Source: Flavobacteriaceae bacterium
GTDB lineage: Bacteria > Bacteroidota > Bacteroidia > Flavobacteriales > Flavobacteriaceae
Assembly (NCBI GenBank): GCA_024644725.1
Contig: JAHEHE010000007.1
Coordinates: forward strand, 1 to 54,635
Direction: 5' to 3'
Length of the DNA stretch: 54,635 bases
Shown: positions 114-7,385 of the stretch, piece by piece
Numbering within the stretch: the first letter of the stretch is position 1
Layout of the letters: each line of letters opens with the position of its first letter
Position numbers and translations under genes: made by a program
The notes under the pieces: generated by a model
Told to the model about the DNA's origin: nothing
Database searches by the model: none
The model's input: only the letters and a program-made list of their open reading frames with translations

Positions 114-163
114 AACTACCGACAACAATGTGCAAAATGTTCAATATGGCTAAGCGCAACTTT

Positions 164-254
164 CTCCCTTCGGTCGGTGATCCTCCATATTTGGAGTTGC
201 GAGAAAAAAGCTGAACCAATTGAAGGATTACCTCCCTTCGGTCGGTGATCCTCC
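164..254. repeat. Two copies of a REP-like palindromic repeat
   Basis: An exact 23-base word occurs at 164-186 and again at 232-254. The second copy lies in a palindrome at 225-251 whose arms are GGATTACC and GGTGATCC, eight pairs with one G-T. The first copy has lost that left arm but is flanked by CGCAACT (155-161) and its complement AGTTGCG (195-201). Related palindromes occur at 19247-19319, also beside a tRNA-Pro. Apart from these repeats I see nothing in 114-281. Confidence 0.75.
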
Positions 255-281
255 AAGGGAGGGACTTAAGACAAATCCTTA

Positions 282-386
282 AAAACGCTGACGCATTTCA
301 GATTTTTTGTTTCGACCCCTTATGAAAGTAAACTTTCAACGGGCTCGAAACAAAAAATCCTTTTGAACTTCCGTTCAAAAGGATTT
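282..386 (-). other. Three-hairpin 3' trailer of tRNA-Pro(GGG), including its terminator
   Basis: Read on the minus strand, the tRNA is followed by three hairpins. The first (386-355) is a perfect 14-bp stem with a 4-base loop and a T-run, a good intrinsic terminator. The second (351-309) has an outer stem (309-315 with 345-351), a CCC/GGG stem, and an inner stem (324-329 with 332-337). The third (298-283) has a six-pair stem including one G-U on the minus strand. The same order of three hairpins follows the other tRNA-Pro at 19353-19460 with different inner stem sequences. Confidence 0.7.
355..386 (-). terminator. Intrinsic terminator of tRNA-Pro(GGG)
   Basis: The arms at 373-386 and 355-368 pair over 14 bp around a 4-base loop. 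On the minus strand the hairpin ends in six T residues (357-352). It starts seven bases past the tRNA discriminator base. Confidence 0.8.
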
Positions 387-558: not shown

Positions 559-993
559 TTAGTCCTTCACTCCTTCAAACAAAATTTTATAGACCTTGCC
601 CACCGCCCAGTTGCCGGCTGGGAAATAGAGAGCAAAGAATAAAGACATGGCCAGAGAAAAGTTGCGGATATTGAAGAGCCTGTCAAGTATGTTGTGAGGA
701 TACGCATAGGAAGTCTCAAGGGCATATCCGGCAAATTCAAGAAAGCCCATGGCCACCAATCCGTAAGCATATTGCTGAAAAAACGGAAGGCCACGCAACA
801 GGAGCGAGATCGGAACCATGTAGACAAGATAAACGGTAAATACCTGCCACCATTGAGCGAACCTGGCGATTTCTGATTTGGCGCCAATATAATTCATGAC
901 CAATCCCCAGGCGAAATAAAAGATGAGATATACCAGGATCAGTTTGGGATCGACAAAAAGCTTAGACTTGGCGTAGGATATAAAATCTTTCAT
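559..993 (-). CDS. Small multi-pass membrane protein of the type III PKS operon
   Basis: The 144-residue product has about four hydrophobic segments, near residues 16-36, 46-65, 74-92 and 110-132, separated by short polar loops. I do not recognise a family and see no catalytic motif. It is the last gene of the nine-gene minus-strand operon and begins two bases after the PPTase stop, so co-translation is likely. By position it might help move or anchor a lipophilic product, but that is inference from context only. Confidence 0.8.
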   Translation of the reverse strand: MKDFISYAKSKLFVDPKLILVYLIFYFAWGLVMNYIGAKSEIARFAQWWQVFTVYLVYMVPISLLLRGLPFFQQYAYGLVAMGFLEFAGYALETSYAYPHNILDRLFNIRNFSLAMSLFFALYFPAGNWAVGKVYKILFEGVKD

Positions 994-995
994 TT

Positions 996-1592
996 TTAAA
1001 TGGCTACTGCATAGGCTCCGAATCTACCGTGATGACTGATCGAACAGGGTTTGAAGATGCCCTTGCATGCATCAGTCAGAAAGGGAAGACCATTCGTGTC
1101 CTTTTTAAATTCAATTTTATCGGATCTCAAGGTGGAAGTGGCACAAATGGAACGAACCAGGGCATCTATCGTTTTCTCTCGCACCTTATTTGCGGAGTCC
1201 GCTGACACCTCCTCGCTATGGATCATAAAATCCTCACGACCATCAATCGCCGTGGTATGCACAAAATCCTTAGAAAAGATAGAATTTGTCTGATAAACCT
1301 GATCGCCCACCTCTACTCTACCCCTGAATCTTCCTTGAGCATCCAGCTCATAGTCTCTATCAAAAGAGCACCTGAAACGAATGGGGTTCAAAGCACGGGT
1401 CAAATATTTTCTAAAATGCAGCTTATAGGCGCTTTCCTTCATCGACCATAACACCCAGAGAAAGGTGCCCGGATCTTCGGTTTGCGACAAGAACAATTTC
1501 TCTGAAGCCGTAAAGACTTTTTCCAGAAGTCGCTCTTGCCTGTATGCTTCTTTGTCGGCCAGATCGAGATCGACTATGTCATTTCCAACCAC
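996..1592 (-). CDS. 4'-phosphopantetheinyl transferase (Sfp/AcpS superfamily)
   Basis: This enzyme transfers 4'-phosphopantetheine from CoA to the serine of a carrier protein. The 198-residue product shows the N-terminal metal-binding motif VGNDIVDLDLAD and, near residues 49-55, WSMKESAYK, which matches the WxxKE(A/S)xxK signature. Its length fits a single-chain Sfp/HetI-type enzyme better than the short AcpS. It starts three bases after the acyl carrier protein gene, so that carrier is the obvious substrate. A private PPTase suggests the ACP is not served efficiently by the housekeeping enzyme. Confidence 0.88.
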   Translation of the reverse strand: MVGNDIVDLDLADKEAYRQERLLEKVFTASEKLFLSQTEDPGTFLWVLWSMKESAYKLHFRKYLTRALNPIRFRCSFDRDYELDAQGRFRGRVEVGDQVYQTNSIFSKDFVHTTAIDGREDFMIHSEEVSADSANKVREKTIDALVRSICATSTLRSDKIEFKKDTNGLPFLTDACKGIFKPCSISHHGRFGAYAVAI

Positions 1593-1595
1593 GTG

Positions 1596-1844
1596 TCAAC
1601 CCAATTTTTGCTCAATGATCTCAATGGCATTTGACACATTGAGCATCTTTTCCATGGATTCATTGTCAATTTCTATGTCAAAGGCGTCTTCTACGTCGAG
1701 TACCACATCGACCAGGTTGGCCGAATTGATCTTCAAATCGTTTATAAAATCGGTCGATTCGTTCATGTTTTGAAAAGCTTCTTCGTCCTGAATATAGGGT
1801 TTGACGATGGCTTTGAGCTTTTCCACCATTTTTTCTTTTTGCAT
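1596..1844 (-). CDS. Acyl carrier protein
   Basis: The 82-residue acidic protein has the carrier-protein four-helix pattern. The likely phosphopantetheine site is Ser41, in INSANLVDVVLDVED. The usual Asp-Ser-Leu triplet is replaced by Asn-Ser-Ala, while the following helix II (valine/leucine-rich, ending in DVEDAF) is typical. It sits between the ketosynthase and its own PPTase. It probably carries the growing acyl chain in the FAS-like part of this operon. The atypical site sequence may make it selective for the adjacent PPTase, which is inference. Confidence 0.88.
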   Translation of the reverse strand: MQKEKMVEKLKAIVKPYIQDEEAFQNMNESTDFINDLKINSANLVDVVLDVEDAFDIEIDNESMEKMLNVSNAIEIIEQKLG

Positions 1845-1888
1845 TTTTACTTAATTGTTTCTGATTCTTTTTTCACCTTTATTCTATC

Positions 1889-3163
1889 CTAACTGAACTT
1901 TTTAAAAAGGACGCAGGCGTTAACATCCCCAAAACCAAAGCTCGCTTTGGCCAACAGGTTGACCTTTGTTTCAATCATCTTTTGAGGCACGCGCGCCGCA
2001 TCGATTTCGTCAGTGATTTCCGGATGCAAATCCTCACTGTTGATCGAAGGAAAGACAAAATCGTGATAGATCTCCAAAACCGAAGAGACGCATTCCAGGC
2101 TTCCCGAAGCCGCCAGTCCATGTCCGGTCATCGACTTCAGGGAGTTGATGTAAGGAAAATTGGACTTTGTTCTGCCCAGGGCTTCTTTCCAGTTGCGTAT
2201 CTCCGTAGGATCTTTCACGGTGGCGGTCAAATGACCGTTGATCAGGTCGATCTCTTCGGCTTGAACATTCGAATCCTTCAACGCCTCTCGTATGCATCTT
2301 TGTACGGCTTCCGAATTGGGCGCTGTCATGGTTCCTCCCTGACGCTGCCCTCCTGAGTTCACATGGCCGCCCAGGACCTCGGCATAAATACGTGCCCCGC
2401 GTTCCAGGGCGGAATTCAGATCCTCAAGAACCAGAGCTCCGGCTCCTGAACCGGGTACAAACCCGGATGCTGTCGCACTCATCGGTCGTGAACCCCTTTC
2501 CGGGGATTCGTTGTGTTTGTAGGTCAAGACGCGCATGGCGTCAAAGCCGCTCCAGAGATAAGGACCCTGATCGCTGCAACTACCTACCAGCATCCGGTTC
2601 GCCTTGCCGTTTTGTATGCGCTCATAACCCAGTAATACGGCCTCGGTGCCCGTAGCACAGGCCGATGAATTTGTTGTTACCTGGTTCCCCAGGCCGAGGA
2701 TTCCACTGAGGTAGGCGCTTACCCCACTTGCCATGGTTTGGGCAACCGTGGTACTCCCGAGTCGACGAACTTTTCCCGCATCAACCAGGTAAATGCCTTC
2801 CCTGAACTTGTCCACTCCAGAGGTTCCGGTTCCAAAGACGGTGCCGCTTTCAAAATCGACCGTACCCTCAGGTTCAATCAGCAACCCGGCATCCTTCCAG
2901 GCATCAATACCCGCCATGCATCCGTAAAGGATTCCGGAGCTATTGAAATTTCTCAATTGAAGCGCAGTGAGATACTTGAGCTTCATTTCTTCGGTGACCT
3001 CAGGTTTACCGGCAATACAGCAAGAGAAACCCAGGTCCTTGAGGTTTTGAATAAAACGTATTCCTGAGCGGCCTTCCCGCAATCCTTGGAGGAAATCCGG
3101 AAGCCCGACTCCGTTGGGGGACACAACGCCCAGACCCGTGATGACTACTCTTCTTTGTTTCAT
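1889..3163 (-). CDS. Beta-ketoacyl-ACP synthase (KAS I/II-like)
   Basis: This is a condensing enzyme that extends acyl chains with malonyl-ACP. The 424-residue protein spans the full thiolase fold. The nucleophile is Cys169 in NSSACATGTEAV. The two histidines are His311 (NGHLTATVKD) and His348 (SLKSMTGHGLAASG), giving the Cys-His-His triad. The region around His311 departs from the usual NAHGTxTxxxD form. No chain-length-factor partner lies nearby, so it probably works as a homodimer. It lies 13 bases after the dehydratase gene. I infer that it builds or extends the acyl starter unit for the type III PKS. Confidence 0.92.
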   Translation of the reverse strand: MKQRRVVITGLGVVSPNGVGLPDFLQGLREGRSGIRFIQNLKDLGFSCCIAGKPEVTEEMKLKYLTALQLRNFNSSGILYGCMAGIDAWKDAGLLIEPEGTVDFESGTVFGTGTSGVDKFREGIYLVDAGKVRRLGSTTVAQTMASGVSAYLSGILGLGNQVTTNSSACATGTEAVLLGYERIQNGKANRMLVGSCSDQGPYLWSGFDAMRVLTYKHNESPERGSRPMSATASGFVPGSGAGALVLEDLNSALERGARIYAEVLGGHVNSGGQRQGGTMTAPNSEAVQRCIREALKDSNVQAEEIDLINGHLTATVKDPTEIRNWKEALGRTKSNFPYINSLKSMTGHGLAASGSLECVSSVLEIYHDFVFPSINSEDLHPEITDEIDAARVPQKMIETKVNLLAKASFGFGDVNACVLFKKFS

Positions 3164-3176
3164 GGGTTAACCTATA

Positions 3177-3620
3177 TCATAACTGAACCATTCCCGAGAT
3201 TTTTCCCCGGCAAACCAACTCCTTTTTTTCATTGAACATCTGTACAAAGCATCTGAGCTTGCCGAACCTCCAAATTTCTTTTTTCGAAACGACCTCCACC
3301 TTCTCTCCCGGATACACCGGAATGAAAAAATCAATGGCCGTCGACGTCATGGCAATCTTCGGAAAGTCATTCTCAATCTTGTCCTTCAACAAGAAAATCC
3401 CTAAACTGACTACGCCAATCTGGGCCATGGTCTCGGTAAGAATCACGCCCGGTGTCACCGGCATGTCCTTAAAATGACCCCTGTAAAAATCGCTGTCTTC
3501 AGCATAGCGAACAGTACCCCGGACACCCTCCTCACTAAGCTCATCAAGGGTGTCTACAAAAAGAAAGGGATCTGCGTAGGGCAGGATGCTCAAGATATCT
3601 TTATTCTTCATCTGATCCAC
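3177..3620 (-). CDS. FabZ-like 3-hydroxyacyl-ACP dehydratase
   Basis: The 147-residue hot-dog-fold protein should remove water from 3-hydroxyacyl-ACP to give trans-2-enoyl-ACP. The catalytic His49 (YRGHFKDMPVTPGV) and Glu63 (LTETMAQ) match the FabZ HFPGxPxxPG...E(A/T)MAQ pattern. The N-terminal YADPFLFVD corresponds to the FabZ PHRxPFLxVD stretch, with Ala-Asp in place of the usual residues. Length is normal. It lies between the SDR and the ketosynthase genes with gaps of about 14 bases, consistent with one transcript. Confidence 0.9.
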   Translation of the reverse strand: MDQMKNKDILSILPYADPFLFVDTLDELSEEGVRGTVRYAEDSDFYRGHFKDMPVTPGVILTETMAQIGVVSLGIFLLKDKIENDFPKIAMTSTAIDFFIPVYPGEKVEVVSKKEIWRFGKLRCFVQMFNEKKELVCRGKISGMVQL

Positions 3621-3634
3621 TTAAACTCTTCTGA

Positions 3635-4432
3635 TCAATGCAAATGCTCTCCTCCATCGACGACAATTGTAGTGCCATTAATCCAATTCGCTTCAGATCT
3701 GCAAAGCAGGTAAACAGCATTGGCTATGTCTTTTGGCATGGTAATCCGATTTTTAGGATTTCTTTGCTTGGCAATTTCCTTAAGTCTCTCACTTCCAGGG
3801 ATCAAACGCAGAGATCTGGTATCAGTAACGCCTGCCTGAATGCAATTCACATTGATCCCGTAGGGAGCAAATTCAACTGCCATCTGTCGTGAAATGCTTT
3901 CGAGAATCGACTTGGATGCTGAAACCGCCCCATACTTGGCGAAGACCTTGGAATTGCCTTCGCTTGTAAAGCTTATGATCCGCGAATTGCCTGAAAACAT
4001 CTTCTCATCCAGAAGTCGACTGCTCCAATCATAAAGACTGGATCCCATCGACTCTACGGTTTGAAGAATGTCATTTCGCGAAAGTCGGTCTTCAGTCGGG
4101 CCTGTCATGGGTTTGAGATTACCCCGGGCGATGCTGTGAACCAAAACTTTCACGGCATCTTCATTTGATAGCTCTTTTTTGAGCGCATCGATCACCCCTG
4201 AAACATGGTCCTCTCGGCACGCATCTTTGTTAAAACTCAGAAGTCTGACACCTTTTTGCCGAATCCCGTCGAACTCCGCATTAATTTCCTCCATTTCATT
4301 TCTAAGATTCCGGTGTACAATGCAAATATTCATGCCGTGATCCGAAAGTTTCTTGGCTGTTGCCAATCCAAGGCCTGAAGAGCCCCCAAGGATCAACGCC
4401 CACTCGTTTTTAAATTCTTTCATATTTACCAT
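3635..4432 (-). CDS. SDR-family reductase, probably enoyl-ACP reductase (FabL/FabI-like)
   Basis: The 265-residue Rossmann protein has the cofactor motif GGSSGLGLA (residues 16-24). Its catalytic residues are Tyr167 and Lys174 in KYGAVSASK, that is Tyr-x6-Lys. That spacing is the hallmark of FabI/FabL enoyl reductases, whereas ketoreductases use Tyr-x3-Lys. The C-terminus INGTTIVVDGGEHLH is typical of SDR reductases. Start choice is ambiguous between Met1 (overlapping the PKS stop by seven bases) and Met4 at 4423; either is translationally coupled. If it is an enoyl reductase, the operon has no ketoreductase of its own. Confidence 0.82.
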   Translation of the reverse strand: MVNMKEFKNEWALILGGSSGLGLATAKKLSDHGMNICIVHRNLRNEMEEINAEFDGIRQKGVRLLSFNKDACREDHVSGVIDALKKELSNEDAVKVLVHSIARGNLKPMTGPTEDRLSRNDILQTVESMGSSLYDWSSRLLDEKMFSGNSRIISFTSEGNSKVFAKYGAVSASKSILESISRQMAVEFAPYGINVNCIQAGVTDTRSLRLIPGSERLKEIAKQRNPKNRITMPKDIANAVYLLCRSEANWINGTTIVVDGGEHLH

Positions 4433-5487
4433 TCCAATAATATTCTTTGTGCCGAAAACCCGGGCCCGAAACTGAGCATCAAACCCTTTTCACCTTGCAC
4501 CGGTTTACGATTCATAAAACGCTCCAACACATAGAGTACGGTTACGCTGCTCATATTTCCGTAAAGCCTCAACACCTCCTTGGTGTCTTCGATGCTTTTT
4601 CCGAGTACCCCAAACAAATCTTCCACGGTTCGGACTATTTTCTTGCCACCCGGATGAAAAATAAGATGGTCTATGTCTTCAATGCCGAGCCCATTCCGTT
4701 CGAGAAAAGGGTTGATGATCCTCGGGAAATGATCGGCTATCGTTTCCGGAACCGTTTTGTCCAATATCATTTGAAGCCCTGTGTTTCGCAGTTTGAACCC
4801 CATCATATGCTCAGCTCCGTAAAAGTGATACATGGCCTCATCCAATATTTTCGGACCCTCCTGCGCATCCATGGGATTTGAGCTTAAGATGACCGCTGCC
4901 GCTCCATCTCCGAAAATAGCGGCGCTGACTATGTTTACCATCGAAAAGTCGTTGTGCTGAAACGTGGCCATGGGCGATTCAACGGCCACTACCGCCGCCC
5001 TCTTTCCGGGGTTCGCCTTTAAGAAATTATTCGCGTAAATGATCCCTGAAACACCGGCTGCACAGCCCATCTCGGTGACCGGTAGCCTGACAATATCCTG
5101 TTTCATACCCATCCGGTTGATCAGATAGGCATCCAGGGATGGGATCATGATTCCGGTACAGCTCACAGTGATGATAAAATCTAATTCATCCGCTTTAAGC
5201 TCAGCATTGCTCAGCGCCTTGCCCAGGGCCTTTTCTCCAAGCTTGACCGACTCCTGCAAGTACAGCTCGTTTTTCGCTTCAAATGAGGTTGCCTCGAATA
5301 CATCGTCGGCATCCATGATCGAGTAACGCTTGTCGACTCCGGCGTTTTCAAAAATCTTGATGACCTTCCTTTGAAAGCGTTTTTCCTGCCCACTGATCCA
5401 ATTCCGGATATAGGGAATCACCTCATCGGTGGTGCGACTGTATTTCGGAAGCTGTCTGCCTACCGATATGATTCTGGTTTGTGTCAT
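4426..5487 (-). CDS. Type III polyketide synthase (chalcone/stilbene synthase family)
   Basis: The homodimeric enzyme condenses an acyl starter with malonyl-CoA units and cyclises the product to resorcinol, phloroglucinol or pyrone rings. The family triad is visible as Cys142 (TEMGCAAGVSG), His278 (IFHPGGKKI) and Asn311 (YGNMSSVTV); GPGFSAQ near the C-terminus is also typical. An upstream ATG at 5529 exists, but I prefer the one at 5487: it forms an ATGA overlap with the methyltransferase stop and gives 353 residues, the usual bacterial length. Starter and ring type cannot be read from sequence by eye. The nearby ACP, KS, DH and ER genes suggest a custom fatty acyl starter. Confidence 0.93.
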   Translation of the reverse strand: MTQTRIISVGRQLPKYSRTTDEVIPYIRNWISGQEKRFQRKVIKIFENAGVDKRYSIMDADDVFEATSFEAKNELYLQESVKLGEKALGKALSNAELKADELDFIITVSCTGIMIPSLDAYLINRMGMKQDIVRLPVTEMGCAAGVSGIIYANNFLKANPGKRAAVVAVESPMATFQHNDFSMVNIVSAAIFGDGAAAVILSSNPMDAQEGPKILDEAMYHFYGAEHMMGFKLRNTGLQMILDKTVPETIADHFPRIINPFLERNGLGIEDIDHLIFHPGGKKIVRTVEDLFGVLGKSIEDTKEVLRLYGNMSSVTVLYVLERFMNRKPVQGEKGLMLSFGPGFSAQRILLEW

Positions 5488-6188
5488 TGATTCAAAATAA
5501 TCCATTGATAACGAAAAGCCCATCTCCATTTAATGCTGCTTTTCCCTTTTATCTTTTGGGCGTATTTCTCCAGGTCTTTTCTCCTGAAAGCCTTGCGGAT
5601 GGACACCAGGCCGTCATTTCGAGCGACGTGATTGCCAAAAAACAAGCTGATGACCCAAAACAGGGCATATGCCAGTTCGCTTCTATGAAGATCATTGACA
5701 AGCACCCCTATGCGGGATTTTTTCTTTATCCCGGAAATCAGTTCGGTTATTTCCTCGTCACTGAAGTGGTGCATGAACAAGGTAGCAATGGCTATGTCAT
5801 ATTCCATTTCCCTGAATTCTGAGGAGAAAATGTTAATTGTTGAGAAATCCACATTATCCATATCGGCGGAAAGCTCCCTGGCATATGCGACTGATGCCGG
5901 ATTCGCATCGATACCCAGTAACTGAAGATCGTAACCGTTTTTCTTTCCAAAAACATGAAGTTTGCGAAGCATGTCTCCATTTCCGCAGCCCAGATCCACA
6001 ATACGGATCGTTTTCTCTTTCGACAGGGGTTGCAGCATTTTTCCGACCCCATCCCGGGTCAATGCATTTCCCCCCAGCCACAAATTGATAGAGGCCAGAA
6101 GATCGAGTGTGCGCCTCAGCTCAGGACCTGACATGGTCATGTCGTCCATGATTTCGAACTGGTCACTTCTTTCTTTCAGTCCTTTCAT
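5484..6188 (-). CDS. SAM-dependent class I methyltransferase
   Basis: The 234-residue protein has the class I Rossmann motif I VDLGCGNGDML at about residues 64-74, followed by an acidic position in LLGIDANP and the later strand DIAIATLFMHHFSDEE. This resembles the UbiE/COQ5-like small-molecule methyltransferases. It overlaps the FAD oxidoreductase upstream and the type III PKS downstream by ATGA junctions, so the three enzymes are probably made together. I infer methylation of the polyketide ring or hydroxyl; C- versus O-methylation is not determined. Confidence 0.88.
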   Translation of the reverse strand: MKGLKERSDQFEIMDDMTMSGPELRRTLDLLASINLWLGGNALTRDGVGKMLQPLSKEKTIRIVDLGCGNGDMLRKLHVFGKKNGYDLQLLGIDANPASVAYARELSADMDNVDFSTINIFSSEFREMEYDIAIATLFMHHFSDEEITELISGIKKKSRIGVLVNDLHRSELAYALFWVISLFFGNHVARNDGLVSIRKAFRRKDLEKYAQKIKGKSSIKWRWAFRYQWIILNQ

Positions 6189-7333
6189 ACGGTAAGGGCT
6201 GATTTACCATGTGTTGCGCTAATAACACGTTTCAGAACGGCAGGGAAACTTTTCAGTACAGGCAAGAGGAATGAGGTAGTTCTGTAATTTCTGAGAAGAA
6301 GAGCCAATGCACGCCCGGCTCTGAGCCTCGATTTGAAATTCTGATTCCATAGCTTCACGTATTGCTTCTCCACTTCTTCTCTTGTTTTTAATTTTCCGTT
6401 AAAATAAGATAAAATCACCTCAGAAACTAATCGCGCAGCGCCGATGGCCATGCCCATCCCATTCCCGCACAGCGGATGAATCAGGCCTGCACTGTCGCCG
6501 CACATCAAAACGTGATCGACCAGGAGCTCCTTGTCATCAAAAGATATCTGACTGATGCTCAGGGGTCTTTCAAAAACCATTTTTGAATTCACAAGTACGT
6601 CATTGAGATCTTTGTTGCTATTGAGCATCGCTTCCTGAAATCCATCTAAGCTTTTGTATTGTTGAAATACTCGATAGTCAACAATATAACAGACATTGAG
6701 CCTGTTGCCCTCCACATTTGACACGCCACAATATCCGCCTTCAAAGTTGTACAACCCGACAAGGTTCTCAGGGTAATTACCCTGGTAATGAGCCTTTACG
6801 GCCACATAAGAAGACTTTTTTCTTATAAATTCCCTGTCCAGTTTTTTATCGAGAATCGAGCGTTTTCCATAGGCACCGATTACAAATCGACTCGAAAATA
6901 GGCTTCCCTTTTTTGTTCGGGTCAAAAATTTATCGTCTTTAAAATCAATTTTCTCCACCTGATCCTTGATGATGCTGGCGCCTTTTTCCTTCGCCCTTAC
7001 AAAAAGAGCGTGATCCAGCGTAAATCGGCTAATCCCAAAACCGCCGAGAGGTAATGATGATCTCAAAGGGTCCTCACCGGGCACTGAGAAGTCCAATTCA
7101 TCGATGCGAACGGCACCAAGGTCAAAGGGATCGATTCCCAGGGAGGATAAATAGGGCAAGGTTTCATTGGAGACGTATTCCCCGCAAACCTTATGTCTAG
7201 GATAGGCTTCTTTTTCGATCAGCACAACGGTAAGACCATTACTTGATATGTCAATGGCACTGCAGAGTCCGGCCAACCCGCCACCTATGATTAGAACGTC
7301 TGAAAAATGTTCTTTTTCATTGTGAATCTCCAT
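6185..7333 (-). CDS. FAD-dependent oxidoreductase (geranylgeranyl reductase / UbiH-like)
   Basis: The 382-residue flavoprotein begins with the dinucleotide-binding motif VLIIGGGLAGLCSA (about residues 14-27). It carries RHKVCGEYVS, characteristic of the geranylgeranyl-reductase branch, and the second FAD motif CGDSAGLIHPLCGNGMG. It has no signal peptide. It is the first gene of the minus-strand biosynthetic operon. Hydroxylation of the aromatic ring or reduction of an unsaturated chain are both possible for this family. A poor -7-like sequence TATCTTGG lies eight bases before the ATG. Confidence 0.86.
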   Translation of the reverse strand: MEIHNEKEHFSDVLIIGGGLAGLCSAIDISSNGLTVVLIEKEAYPRHKVCGEYVSNETLPYLSSLGIDPFDLGAVRIDELDFSVPGEDPLRSSLPLGGFGISRFTLDHALFVRAKEKGASIIKDQVEKIDFKDDKFLTRTKKGSLFSSRFVIGAYGKRSILDKKLDREFIRKKSSYVAVKAHYQGNYPENLVGLYNFEGGYCGVSNVEGNRLNVCYIVDYRVFQQYKSLDGFQEAMLNSNKDLNDVLVNSKMVFERPLSISQISFDDKELLVDHVLMCGDSAGLIHPLCGNGMGMAIGAARLVSEVILSYFNGKLKTREEVEKQYVKLWNQNFKSRLRAGRALALLLRNYRTTSFLLPVLKSFPAVLKRVISATHGKSALTV

Positions 7334-7356: not shown

Positions 7357-7385
7357 TTGACGCCTGAGATAAAATTCTTAATTTG
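7357..7385 (+). promoter_or_regulatory. Candidate promoter of the PQQ dehydrogenase gene
   Basis: TTG at 7357-7359 and TTAATTTG at 7378-7385 are separated by 18 bases. The latter differs from TAnnTTTG at one position. A possible TTG start at 7383 lies inside this box, which argues for the ATG at 7422 as the real start. Confidence 0.45.

What the first reader, a model, noticed from the sequence alone, without database searches (positions are those of the whole stretch)
559..7333. Nine-gene operon pairing a dedicated type II FAS-like module with a type III PKS
ACP, PPTase, ketosynthase, FabZ-like dehydratase and enoyl-reductase-like SDR genes are packed with a type III PKS, methyltransferase, FAD enzyme and small membrane protein on one strand, with gaps under 45 bases and several ATGA overlaps. 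Families and active sites are seen directly. Known precedent: type III PKSs make alkylresorcinols and pyrones from fatty acyl starters. The inference is that the module makes a custom acyl starter on its own ACP, giving a new phenolic lipid. I know of no characterised product for this gene set.
Basis: partly seen in the sequence, partly recalled or inferred. Interest (0 to 1): 0.75.

Follow-up and report, generated by a model that had tools for sequence, protein, structure and literature searches.

The report
Fatty-tail cassette paired with polyketide synthase
A nine-gene operon, whose core is conserved in about a third of the sampled genomes of its bacterial family (apparently Flavobacteriaceae), joins a small set of fatty-acid-building enzymes to a ring-forming type III polyketide synthase, and probably makes an unknown fat-tailed phenol or pyrone whose tail is built separately from ordinary membrane fats.

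Summary
Observation confirmed: nine minus-strand genes (7333 to 559), at most 44 bases apart: FAD enzyme, methyltransferase, type III PKS, FabL-like reductase, FabZ-like dehydratase, FabF-like ketosynthase (KS), ACP, PPTase, membrane protein. Catalytic residues tested are invariant in relatives.

Of 299 same-family genomes, 103 carry this PKS. In a phylum sample of 395, the 33 genomes with this PKS are exactly the 33 with its KS partner (over 717 bits). No KS or dehydratase was found in 32 loci of a second PKS clade. Two genomes with a split operon keep the KS elsewhere. A related cassette stands beside the dialkylresorcinol gene darB in two genomes, but only 2 of 33 darB genomes.

Most likely the cassette, with host FabG and other help, builds an acyl-ACP starter. 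The PKS makes an alkylresorcinol (or pyrone), then tailored by the FAD enzyme and methyltransferase. Product and ACP-to-PKS transfer are inferred. Closest precedents: Azotobacter arsABCD (type I FAS + PPTase + type III PKS) and hidABC. New variant of a known kind; ten searches of an open-licence library showed me no product.

The parts
6185..7333 (-). FAD-dependent enzyme, first gene (geranylgeranyl-reductase / flavin-monooxygenase group); predicted ring hydroxylase or oxidase
   Evidence: GG-red-SF 111 bits, cut-off 158.8; QhpG 79 bits, cut-off 240; found with the PKS in 101 of 101 loci
5484..6188 (-). SAM methyltransferase, PRK06202-like; predicted to methylate the ring or a hydroxyl
   Evidence: (147 bits, cut-off 243); 101 of 101 loci
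4426..5487 (-). type III polyketide synthase (ORF opens at 5529; conserved start at 5487, ATGA overlap with the methyltransferase)
   Evidence: Cys156/His292/Asn325 (numbering from 5529) in 101 of 101 loci; AF2 model nearest PKS11 and CylI
3635..4432 (-). FabL-like enoyl-reductase SDR (Tyr167-x6-Lys174)
   Evidence: Tyr and Lys in 92 of 92; not found in 9 of 101 family loci and 23 of 80 named loci
3177..3620 (-). FabZ-like 3-hydroxyacyl-ACP dehydratase (His49, Glu63)
   Evidence: both residues in 96 of 96
1889..3163 (-). FabF-like ketosynthase, Cys169/His311/His348 intact
   Evidence: residues in 95 of 95; a separate FabF-like gene lies on contig C98
1596..1844 (-). acyl carrier protein, Ser41 in an Asn-Ser-Ala context
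   Evidence: Asn40-Ser41 in 87 of 87
996..1592 (-). 4'-phosphopantetheinyl transferase
   Evidence: PF01648 43.6 bits, above cut-off 25; a second ACPS-family gene lies on contig C35
559..993 (-). small membrane protein, no known family, predicted helical bundle
   Evidence: no PDB fold match at E <= 0.001; 26 of 101 loci

Best explanation
The operon makes a fat-tailed aromatic or pyrone lipid whose tail is built on a dedicated carrier. SHOWN: the genes, their intact active sites, and co-inheritance of the KS cassette with this one clade of type III PKS. INFERRED steps: (1) the PPTase arms the ACP. (2) KS, FabZ-like dehydratase and FabL-like reductase lengthen and saturate an acyl chain on that ACP, borrowing host FabD (malonyl loading), FabG (keto reduction) and probably FabH or housekeeping acyl-ACP for priming. 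(3) The acyl group passes from ACP to Cys156 of the PKS, which adds about three malonyl units and closes the ring, giving an alkylresorcinol (favoured) or alkylpyrone. (4) The FAD enzyme and the methyltransferase oxidise and methylate the ring, as proposed for hierridin-type pathways. (5) The membrane protein holds or moves the lipid (a guess). Product and acyl transfer are not demonstrated.
For: 103 of 299 same-family genomes, the window's own included, carry a PKS ortholog (E <= 1.1e-107). In 101 loci read in detail (100 of those genomes plus the window), FAD and MT are found in 101, DH in 96, KS in 95, SDR in 92, ACP in 87. In 395 genomes of the phylum, 33 hold this PKS clade (E <= 1.2e-190) and the same 33 hold the KS ortholog above 717 bits. 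The 32 loci of the second PKS clade show neither KS nor DH. Of the six loci without a full adjacent KS, four genomes have the KS ortholog elsewhere: two with a truly distant place, two on another contig. The PKS-linked KSs form one group (support 92/95). A related SDR-DH-KS-ACP-PPTase set lies divergently beside a darB gene (635 and 615 bits, cut-off 550) in two genomes of other families of the class. The PKS model is closest to PKS11 (Z 43.2) and CylI (Z 41.4), whose entry titles name alkylpyrones and acyl/ketoacyl substrates. Published precedent for acyl-ACP feeding: ArsA to ArsB/ArsC, germicidin synthase and SCO7671 (passages of PMC6274091); ArsD is a PPTase (passages of PMC4824345).
Against: No biochemistry or product. 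Synteny can reflect vertical inheritance inside one family: the PKS/KS distance correlation of 0.72 does not separate the two. Of 33 genomes with a DarB match at E <= 1e-100 (29 above cut-off), only two show a related KS at E <= 1e-130 beyond the PKS-linked one, so the darB link is rare. Five genomes have a more distant KS relative (540-606 bits) without this PKS; in three of them it sits with a GNAT-like protein and a glycosyltransferase. The SDR is missing in many relatives. In Planctomycetota, co-expressing the hid-type methyltransferase and oxidoreductase gave a single methylation only, and the oxidoreductase's role stayed unresolved (PMC10896814 passages), so step 4 is weak. At the position I aligned by hand to chalcone synthase Gly256 the PKS has Phe245, but the pyrone-maker PKS11 is aromatic there too, so ring type is undecided.
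Confidence: 0.65

Rival explanations
1. Two separate lipid parts: the PKS takes ordinary housekeeping acyl-CoA or acyl-ACP, while the KS/DH/SDR/ACP set makes a second acyl chain that is later attached to the ring (as flexirubin joins a dialkylresorcinol to a polyene acid).
For: Flexirubin is such a two-part molecule made by FAS-like genes plus dar genes (abstract and passages of PMC3992019). Planctomycetal hid-type PKSs gave alkylresorcinols in a foreign host without a linked cassette (PMC10896814 abstract and passages). The three annotated plasmid regions viewed around type III PKS genes list no KS or ACP gene (one has an SDR).
Against: No acyltransferase or ligase was recognised in the operon that would attach a second chain. 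PKS and KS are found in exactly the same 33 of 395 genomes.
Confidence: 0.17
2. The cassette makes the tail, but the PKS releases an alkylpyrone rather than a resorcinol, and the FAD enzyme and methyltransferase act on other positions. (A variant of the best explanation; its odds overlap with it.)
For: The best PDB sequence and fold match is the alkylpyrone synthase PKS11. ArsB/ArsC show that a single residue can switch ring type (passages of PMC6274091).
Against: The methyltransferase-oxidoreductase-PKS trio resembles hidABC, whose tested planctomycetal members make alkylresorcinols (PMC10896814). A related cassette beside darB in two genomes points to resorcinols.
Confidence: 0.25
3. The KS/DH/SDR/ACP set is a general specialised-acyl cassette for envelope lipids that merely sits in the operon, with no direct hand-over to the PKS.
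For: Related DH-KS-ACP genes occur with a GNAT-like protein and a hopanoid-type glycosyltransferase in L301-L303, without the PKS.
Against: Those copies are a separate, well-supported group (100/96). The close KS ortholog occurs only with the PKS in 395 genomes, and two genomes with a split operon keep both.
Confidence: 0.12

Closest known systems
Azotobacter vinelandii arsABCD (alkylresorcinol/alkylpyrone lipids)
   Same: A dedicated fatty acid synthase, a PPTase and type III PKSs in one operon; the acyl chain passes directly from the carrier to the PKS (passages seen in PMC6274091, PMC4824345, PMC3098273).
   Different: ars uses a type I FAS and two type III PKSs; here there are separate type II-style proteins, an incomplete set, one PKS, and added FAD and methyltransferase genes.
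hidABC hierridin-type operons (cyanobacteria, Planctomycetota)
   Same: Methyltransferase, oxidoreductase and type III PKS adjacent, PKS third; tested planctomycetal PKSs make long-chain alkylresorcinols (PMC10896814: abstract, section 13 and passages; PMC8086630 passages).
   Different: The passages seen mention no linked KS/DH/ER/ACP/PPTase. Order of the first two genes is FAD then MT here, MT then oxidoreductase in hid.
darAB dialkylresorcinol / flexirubin genes
   Same: A related SDR-DH-KS-ACP-PPTase cassette lies beside darB in L299 and L300.
   Different: The ring-forming enzyme there is DarB (StlD/DarB-type ketosynthase), not a type III PKS. The window's genome gave no DarB match at E <= 1e-100.
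cylindrocyclophane CylI system
   Same: A type III PKS fed from a carrier-bound chain to make a resorcinol (PMC8086630 passages); CylI is among the nearest folds (Z 41.4).
   Different: [quoted passage not shown] no type II KS/DH/ER set is described.

Membership tests
type III polyketide synthase | CHS-like fold and both Pfam domains | tested here: met
   PF00195 and PF02797 above cut-off; AF2 model pLDDT 81.7; the 50 listed chains, Z 37.8-43.2, are type III PKSs by their titles
type III polyketide synthase | Cys-His-Asn catalytic triad | tested here: met
   Cys156, His292, Asn325 in 101 of 101 loci
ars-type dedicated FAS feeding a type III PKS | type I FAS megasynthase | tested here: not met
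   Separate KS, DH, SDR and ACP genes
ars-type dedicated FAS feeding a type III PKS | dedicated PPTase in the operon | tested here: met
   PF01648 at 996-1592; variable in relatives, 31 of 101 at the strict profile, 69 of 80 named loci
ars-type dedicated FAS feeding a type III PKS | direct acyl transfer from carrier protein to PKS | not testable with these tools
   Needs loaded ACP and purified PKS
hidABC-type operon | methyltransferase + oxidoreductase + type III PKS adjacent on one strand | tested here: met
   All three in 101 of 101 loci, same strand, median gaps -4 and -4; gene order of the first two differs from hid
hidABC-type operon | sequence orthology to HidA, HidB and HidC | not tested
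complete type II fatty acid synthase | ketosynthase, dehydratase, enoyl reductase and ACP with intact active sites | tested here: met
   Residues invariant in 95 of 95, 96 of 96, 92 of 92 and 87 of 87
complete type II fatty acid synthase | own ketoreductase, malonyl transferase and FabH in the operon | tested here: not met
   None recognised among the nine genes; FabG (C116) and FabH (C118, C135) elsewhere in the genome
FabL enoyl-ACP reductase | Tyr-x6-Lys motif | tested here: met
   92 of 92
FabL enoyl-ACP reductase | score above the NCBIfam FabL cut-off | tested here: not met
   156.1 bits against 328
dialkylresorcinol (dar) system | DarB ketosynthase present | tested here: not met
   No match in the window's genome (about 90% complete) at E <= 1e-100

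The most novel reading that the evidence does not exclude
The KS/DH/ER/ACP(/PPTase) set is a portable 'lipid tail' cassette of Bacteroidota that was plugged into unrelated ring-forming enzymes: DarB in a few lineages and this type III PKS clade in many. The PKS partner has become obligately ACP-fed by it, so that about a third of this family make a still unseen tailored alkylresorcinol/quinone lipid of the envelope. This would be the first type III PKS known to be served by its own dedicated type II fatty-acid cassette.
Probability: 0.3. Interest if true: 0.7.

Novelty: new variant of a known kind. Interest (0 to 1): 0.5.

Why it matters
Genome surveys list 'T3PKS' clusters in marine Flavobacteriaceae (0.39 per marine-clade genome; PMC7440613 passages), but the passages I read give no product or mechanism for them. 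This analysis shows that one conserved PKS clade goes with a dedicated tail-building cassette, and separates it from a second PKS clade of the phylum whose loci lack the cassette. If the hand-over is confirmed, it adds a discrete, easily swapped type II route to the few known ways of feeding type III PKSs from carrier proteins, and gives a widespread family an identifiable lipid or pigment.

Tried and rejected
Rejected: chance clustering (100 relatives). Rejected: housekeeping FAS operon, since the genome has a separate FabF-like gene on C98 (identity as FabF not family-tested), FabG on C116 and FabH on C118/C135. Rejected: aryl-polyene/flexirubin cluster, because there is no DarB match in this genome and only one KS in the operon. 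A published 'T3pks-arylpolyene' label for an Aequorivita cluster (PMC6139392 passages) may reflect these FAS-like genes. Rejected: mutual exclusion of DarB and this PKS, since 14 of the 33 genomes with this PKS also have a DarB match.

Led nowhere: the membrane protein's family and fold (Pfam; Foldseek, best E 2.2; VIA, best Z 4.2). Ring-type prediction from the ArsB Trp281/ArsC Gly284 rule: ArsC did not appear in the listed PDB hits, the original paper is not held, and PKS11 and RppA also carry aromatic residues at the position I aligned by hand to chalcone synthase Gly256; the mapping and chalcone synthase numbering are recalled. Sigma-70 promoter scan: fewer hits than shuffles. Distance correlations between genes do not separate function from shared ancestry.

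Rows dropped and limits: the tree used 29 loci (window plus 28 drawn at random) with KS over 400 aa, 3 loci from genomes of other families, 5 cassette relatives and 1 FabF-like row; one search's correlations used 84 of 101 loci. G073 and G150 also carry the ortholog but were not in the 101. Their loci (L028; L282) show FAD, MT, SDR, DH and KS; G150's PKS is split. In the second-clade set, two of 32 loci (L266, L272) gave no profile hit at all, so my simple ORF caller may have missed genes there, and several stretches end at a contig end. One search lists only E <= 1e-60, so weaker PKSs are not counted; three weaker PKS-like loci of the family sample (L279-L281) show no KS either. The named set of 80 (the best 80 of a capped scan) and the phylum sample overlap the family sample, so the three are not independent.

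Absence of a published product rests on ten searches of an open-licence library; three lists were cut at 20 (of 22, 1,257 and 51 papers). Papers seen: passages only for PMC7440613, PMC6139392, PMC9860996, PMC3992019, PMC6274091, PMC8086630, PMC12565237, PMC9323603, PMC10752948, PMC3098273 and PMC4824345; abstract, section 13 and passages for PMC10896814.

Full report
WHAT IS THERE. Nine genes lie on the minus strand from 7333 down to 559: FAD enzyme, methyltransferase (MT), type III PKS, SDR, FabZ-like dehydratase (DH), FabF-like ketosynthase (KS), ACP, PPTase and a small membrane protein. Family assignments come from Pfam and NCBIfam. The largest gap is 44 bases. FAD/MT overlap by ATGA, and so do MT/PKS if the PKS starts at its conserved Met15 (5487 instead of 5529). 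Upstream, an ORF of 760 aa on the plus strand opens at 7383; downstream lies a tRNA-Pro (392-467).

ACTIVE SITES. Across relatives, the PKS triad Cys156/His292/Asn325 is present in 101 of 101, KS Cys169/His311/His348 in 95 of 95, DH His49/Glu63 in 96 of 96, SDR Tyr167-x6-Lys174 in 92 of 92, and ACP Asn40-Ser41 in 87 of 87. The roles of these residues are recalled, as is the rule that Tyr-x6-Lys marks FabI/FabL enoyl reductases rather than FabG; the best PDB match of the SDR is an enoyl-ACP reductase, 3oic. The FabL NCBIfam cut-off is not reached (156 of 328 bits). Active sites of PPTase, MT and FAD enzyme were not tested.

THE FAMILY. That the family is Flavobacteriaceae is my inference from contigs of equal length among the named loci: G267:C1 and L137 (563,621 bases, Psychroserpens), G244:C1 and L170 (1,567,805 bases, Gelidibacter sediminis).

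In 299 same-family genomes, the window's own included, 103 have a PKS ortholog at E <= 1.1e-107 (counted from the listing, next best match 7.9e-53). I read 100 of them plus the window in detail: FAD 101, MT 101, DH 96, KS 95, SDR 92, ACP 87, PPTase 31 and membrane protein 26 of 101. Median gaps between neighbours run from -8 to 5.5 bases, and no pair is on opposite strands. Six loci lack a full adjacent KS. In G190 the KS ortholog lies about 355 kb from the PKS and in G144 on another contig, so those operons are split. In G276 and G066 it is on another contig, which may be an assembly break. In G138 and G293 none was found at E <= 1e-100; G293's PKS contig ends inside a KS fragment, and G138's ends in a DH fragment behind inserted genes. 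A second view, 80 loci with organism names, shows MT and FAD in 80, KS and DH in 78, PPTase in 69, ACP in 67, SDR in 57 and membrane protein in 5 of 80. These include Psychroserpens, Winogradskyella, Polaribacter, Tenacibaculum, Flavobacterium, Aequorivita, Brumimicrobium and MAGs labelled Cyclobacteriaceae and Saprospiraceae. The two sets overlap.

PHYLUM SAMPLE. In 395 genomes of the phylum the PKS profile splits cleanly: 33 genomes at E <= 1.2e-190 (30 of the family, 3 of two other families of the class) and 32 at 4e-61 to 5e-78 (listing cut at 1e-60). The KS profile finds the same 33 genomes above 717 bits, plus five at 540-606 bits (cut at 1e-130). Loci of the second PKS clade show no KS or DH in any of 32, with two of the 32 giving no profile hit at all; two others show MT plus weak FAD matches. 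One second-clade genome, G394, does have a related cassette, but on another contig beside darB. The close cassette therefore goes with one PKS clade, not with type III PKSs of the phylum in general.

A LINK TO RESORCINOLS, AND ITS LIMITS. The five genomes with a related KS but no clade-A PKS were opened. In two (L299, L300) the full set SDR-DH-KS-ACP-PPTase stands divergently beside a gene scoring 635 and 615 bits to DarB, above its cut-off of 550. The 300- or 299-aa neighbour had no family match; I believe it is DarA from recall only. DarB is the dialkylresorcinol ketosynthase. But DarB matches occur in 33 of the 395 genomes (29 above cut-off), and only these two show a related KS at E <= 1e-130 beyond the PKS-linked one. 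Fourteen of the 33 PKS genomes also have DarB, so the systems are not exclusive. In the other three of the five (L301-L303), DH-KS-ACP (with SDR in L301) sits with a GNAT-like protein and a glycosyltransferase, which speaks against a strictly resorcinol-bound cassette. In the tree the PKS-linked KSs are one group (92/95) and the glycosyltransferase-linked ones another (100/96); deeper branches depend on a long FabF-like outgroup.

HOW IT PROBABLY WORKS. The operon has KS, DH, enoyl reductase, ACP and PPTase, but no recognised ketoreductase, malonyl transferase or FabH. FabG and two FabH genes lie elsewhere in the genome, as does a second ACPS-family gene; FabD was not searched. The cassette would thus lengthen and saturate a chain on its own ACP with host help. 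The PKS model is closest to PKS11 (Z 43.2, rmsd 2.8, 348 aligned) and CylI (Z 41.4, 2.8, 345), ahead of other listed entries at 39.4 or less. Type III PKSs can take acyl groups from carrier proteins (ArsB/C from ArsA, germicidin synthase, SCO7671; passages of PMC6274091). I therefore favour an acyl-ACP-fed alkylresorcinol, then FAD-dependent oxidation and methylation. Steps from ACP loading to final product are inference. The role of the oxidoreductase was not resolved even in the planctomycetal hid-type work (PMC10896814 passages). Resorcinol versus pyrone is not settled by sequence.

WHAT IS KNOWN. Azotobacter arsABCD combines a fatty acid synthase (type I), a PPTase and two type III PKSs (PMC4824345 passages; PMC6274091 passages). 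hidABC-type operons combine methyltransferase, oxidoreductase and type III PKS; tested planctomycetal PKSs make alkylresorcinols (PMC10896814). The window's operon reads like a union of both ideas with type II parts. Surveys list T3PKS clusters in Flavobacteriaceae: 0.39 per marine-clade genome (PMC7440613 passages); in Aquimarina two gene cluster families plus singletons (PMC9323603 passages), one T3PKS family of that genus reported as unlike any known compound's cluster (PMC9860996 passages). Ten searches showed me no characterised product for this gene set; subscription papers and preprints are not covered, and three lists were cut at 20.

VERDICT. Observation confirmed; interpretation strengthened but not proven. 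New variant of a known kind. Interest is moderate: the strict tie of the cassette to one PKS clade, and its occasional pairing with darB, make a testable modular system, but the chemistry expected is of a known type.

Noticed in passing
L042, L046, L058 and others; upstream of the operon in relatives: In 68 of 101 loci a fused E1 dehydrogenase of about 668 aa (E1_dh plus transketolase domains by Pfam) lies in the stretch read; a lipocalin-like protein and an OmpA/glycine-zipper protein are each found in 64 loci. The window's first 16 kb lacks them. A link to branched acyl starters is possible but may be inherited synteny.
   Followed up: partly
L301:8597-13746, L302:6825-11189, L303:7606-11856: The related DH-KS-ACP set (with SDR in L301) occurs with a GNAT-like protein and a HpnB/HpnI-like glycosyltransferase, with no type III PKS in the stretch: apparently another unknown lipid pathway (families scanned for L301 only).
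   Followed up: partly
L138:12894-13589, L143:12915-13610, L161:13874-14596, L213:14199-14906: A second copy of the operon-type methyltransferase lies near the membrane-protein gene in four named loci, suggesting doubly methylated products there.
   Followed up: no
Polaribacter/Flavobacterium loci such as L148, L202; also L263: The FabL-like SDR was not found in 23 of 80 named loci, so the host enoyl reductase may serve or the tail may stay unsaturated.
   Followed up: no
L282 (G150): The type III PKS is split into two frames while the rest of the operon is present: a sequencing error or a recent loss.
   Followed up: no
window 355-386: A 14-pair inverted repeat followed by T-rich sequence, just past the tRNA-Pro on the same strand as the operon: possible shared terminator.
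   Followed up: no
window 160-258: A 23-base stretch, 'ctcccttcggtcggtgatcctcc', occurs twice within about 100 bases beyond the tRNA (seen by eye).
   Followed up: no
window 559-993: The small membrane protein is well conserved (63-71% identity to five relatives) yet has no Pfam/NCBIfam family and no convincing fold match.
   Followed up: partly
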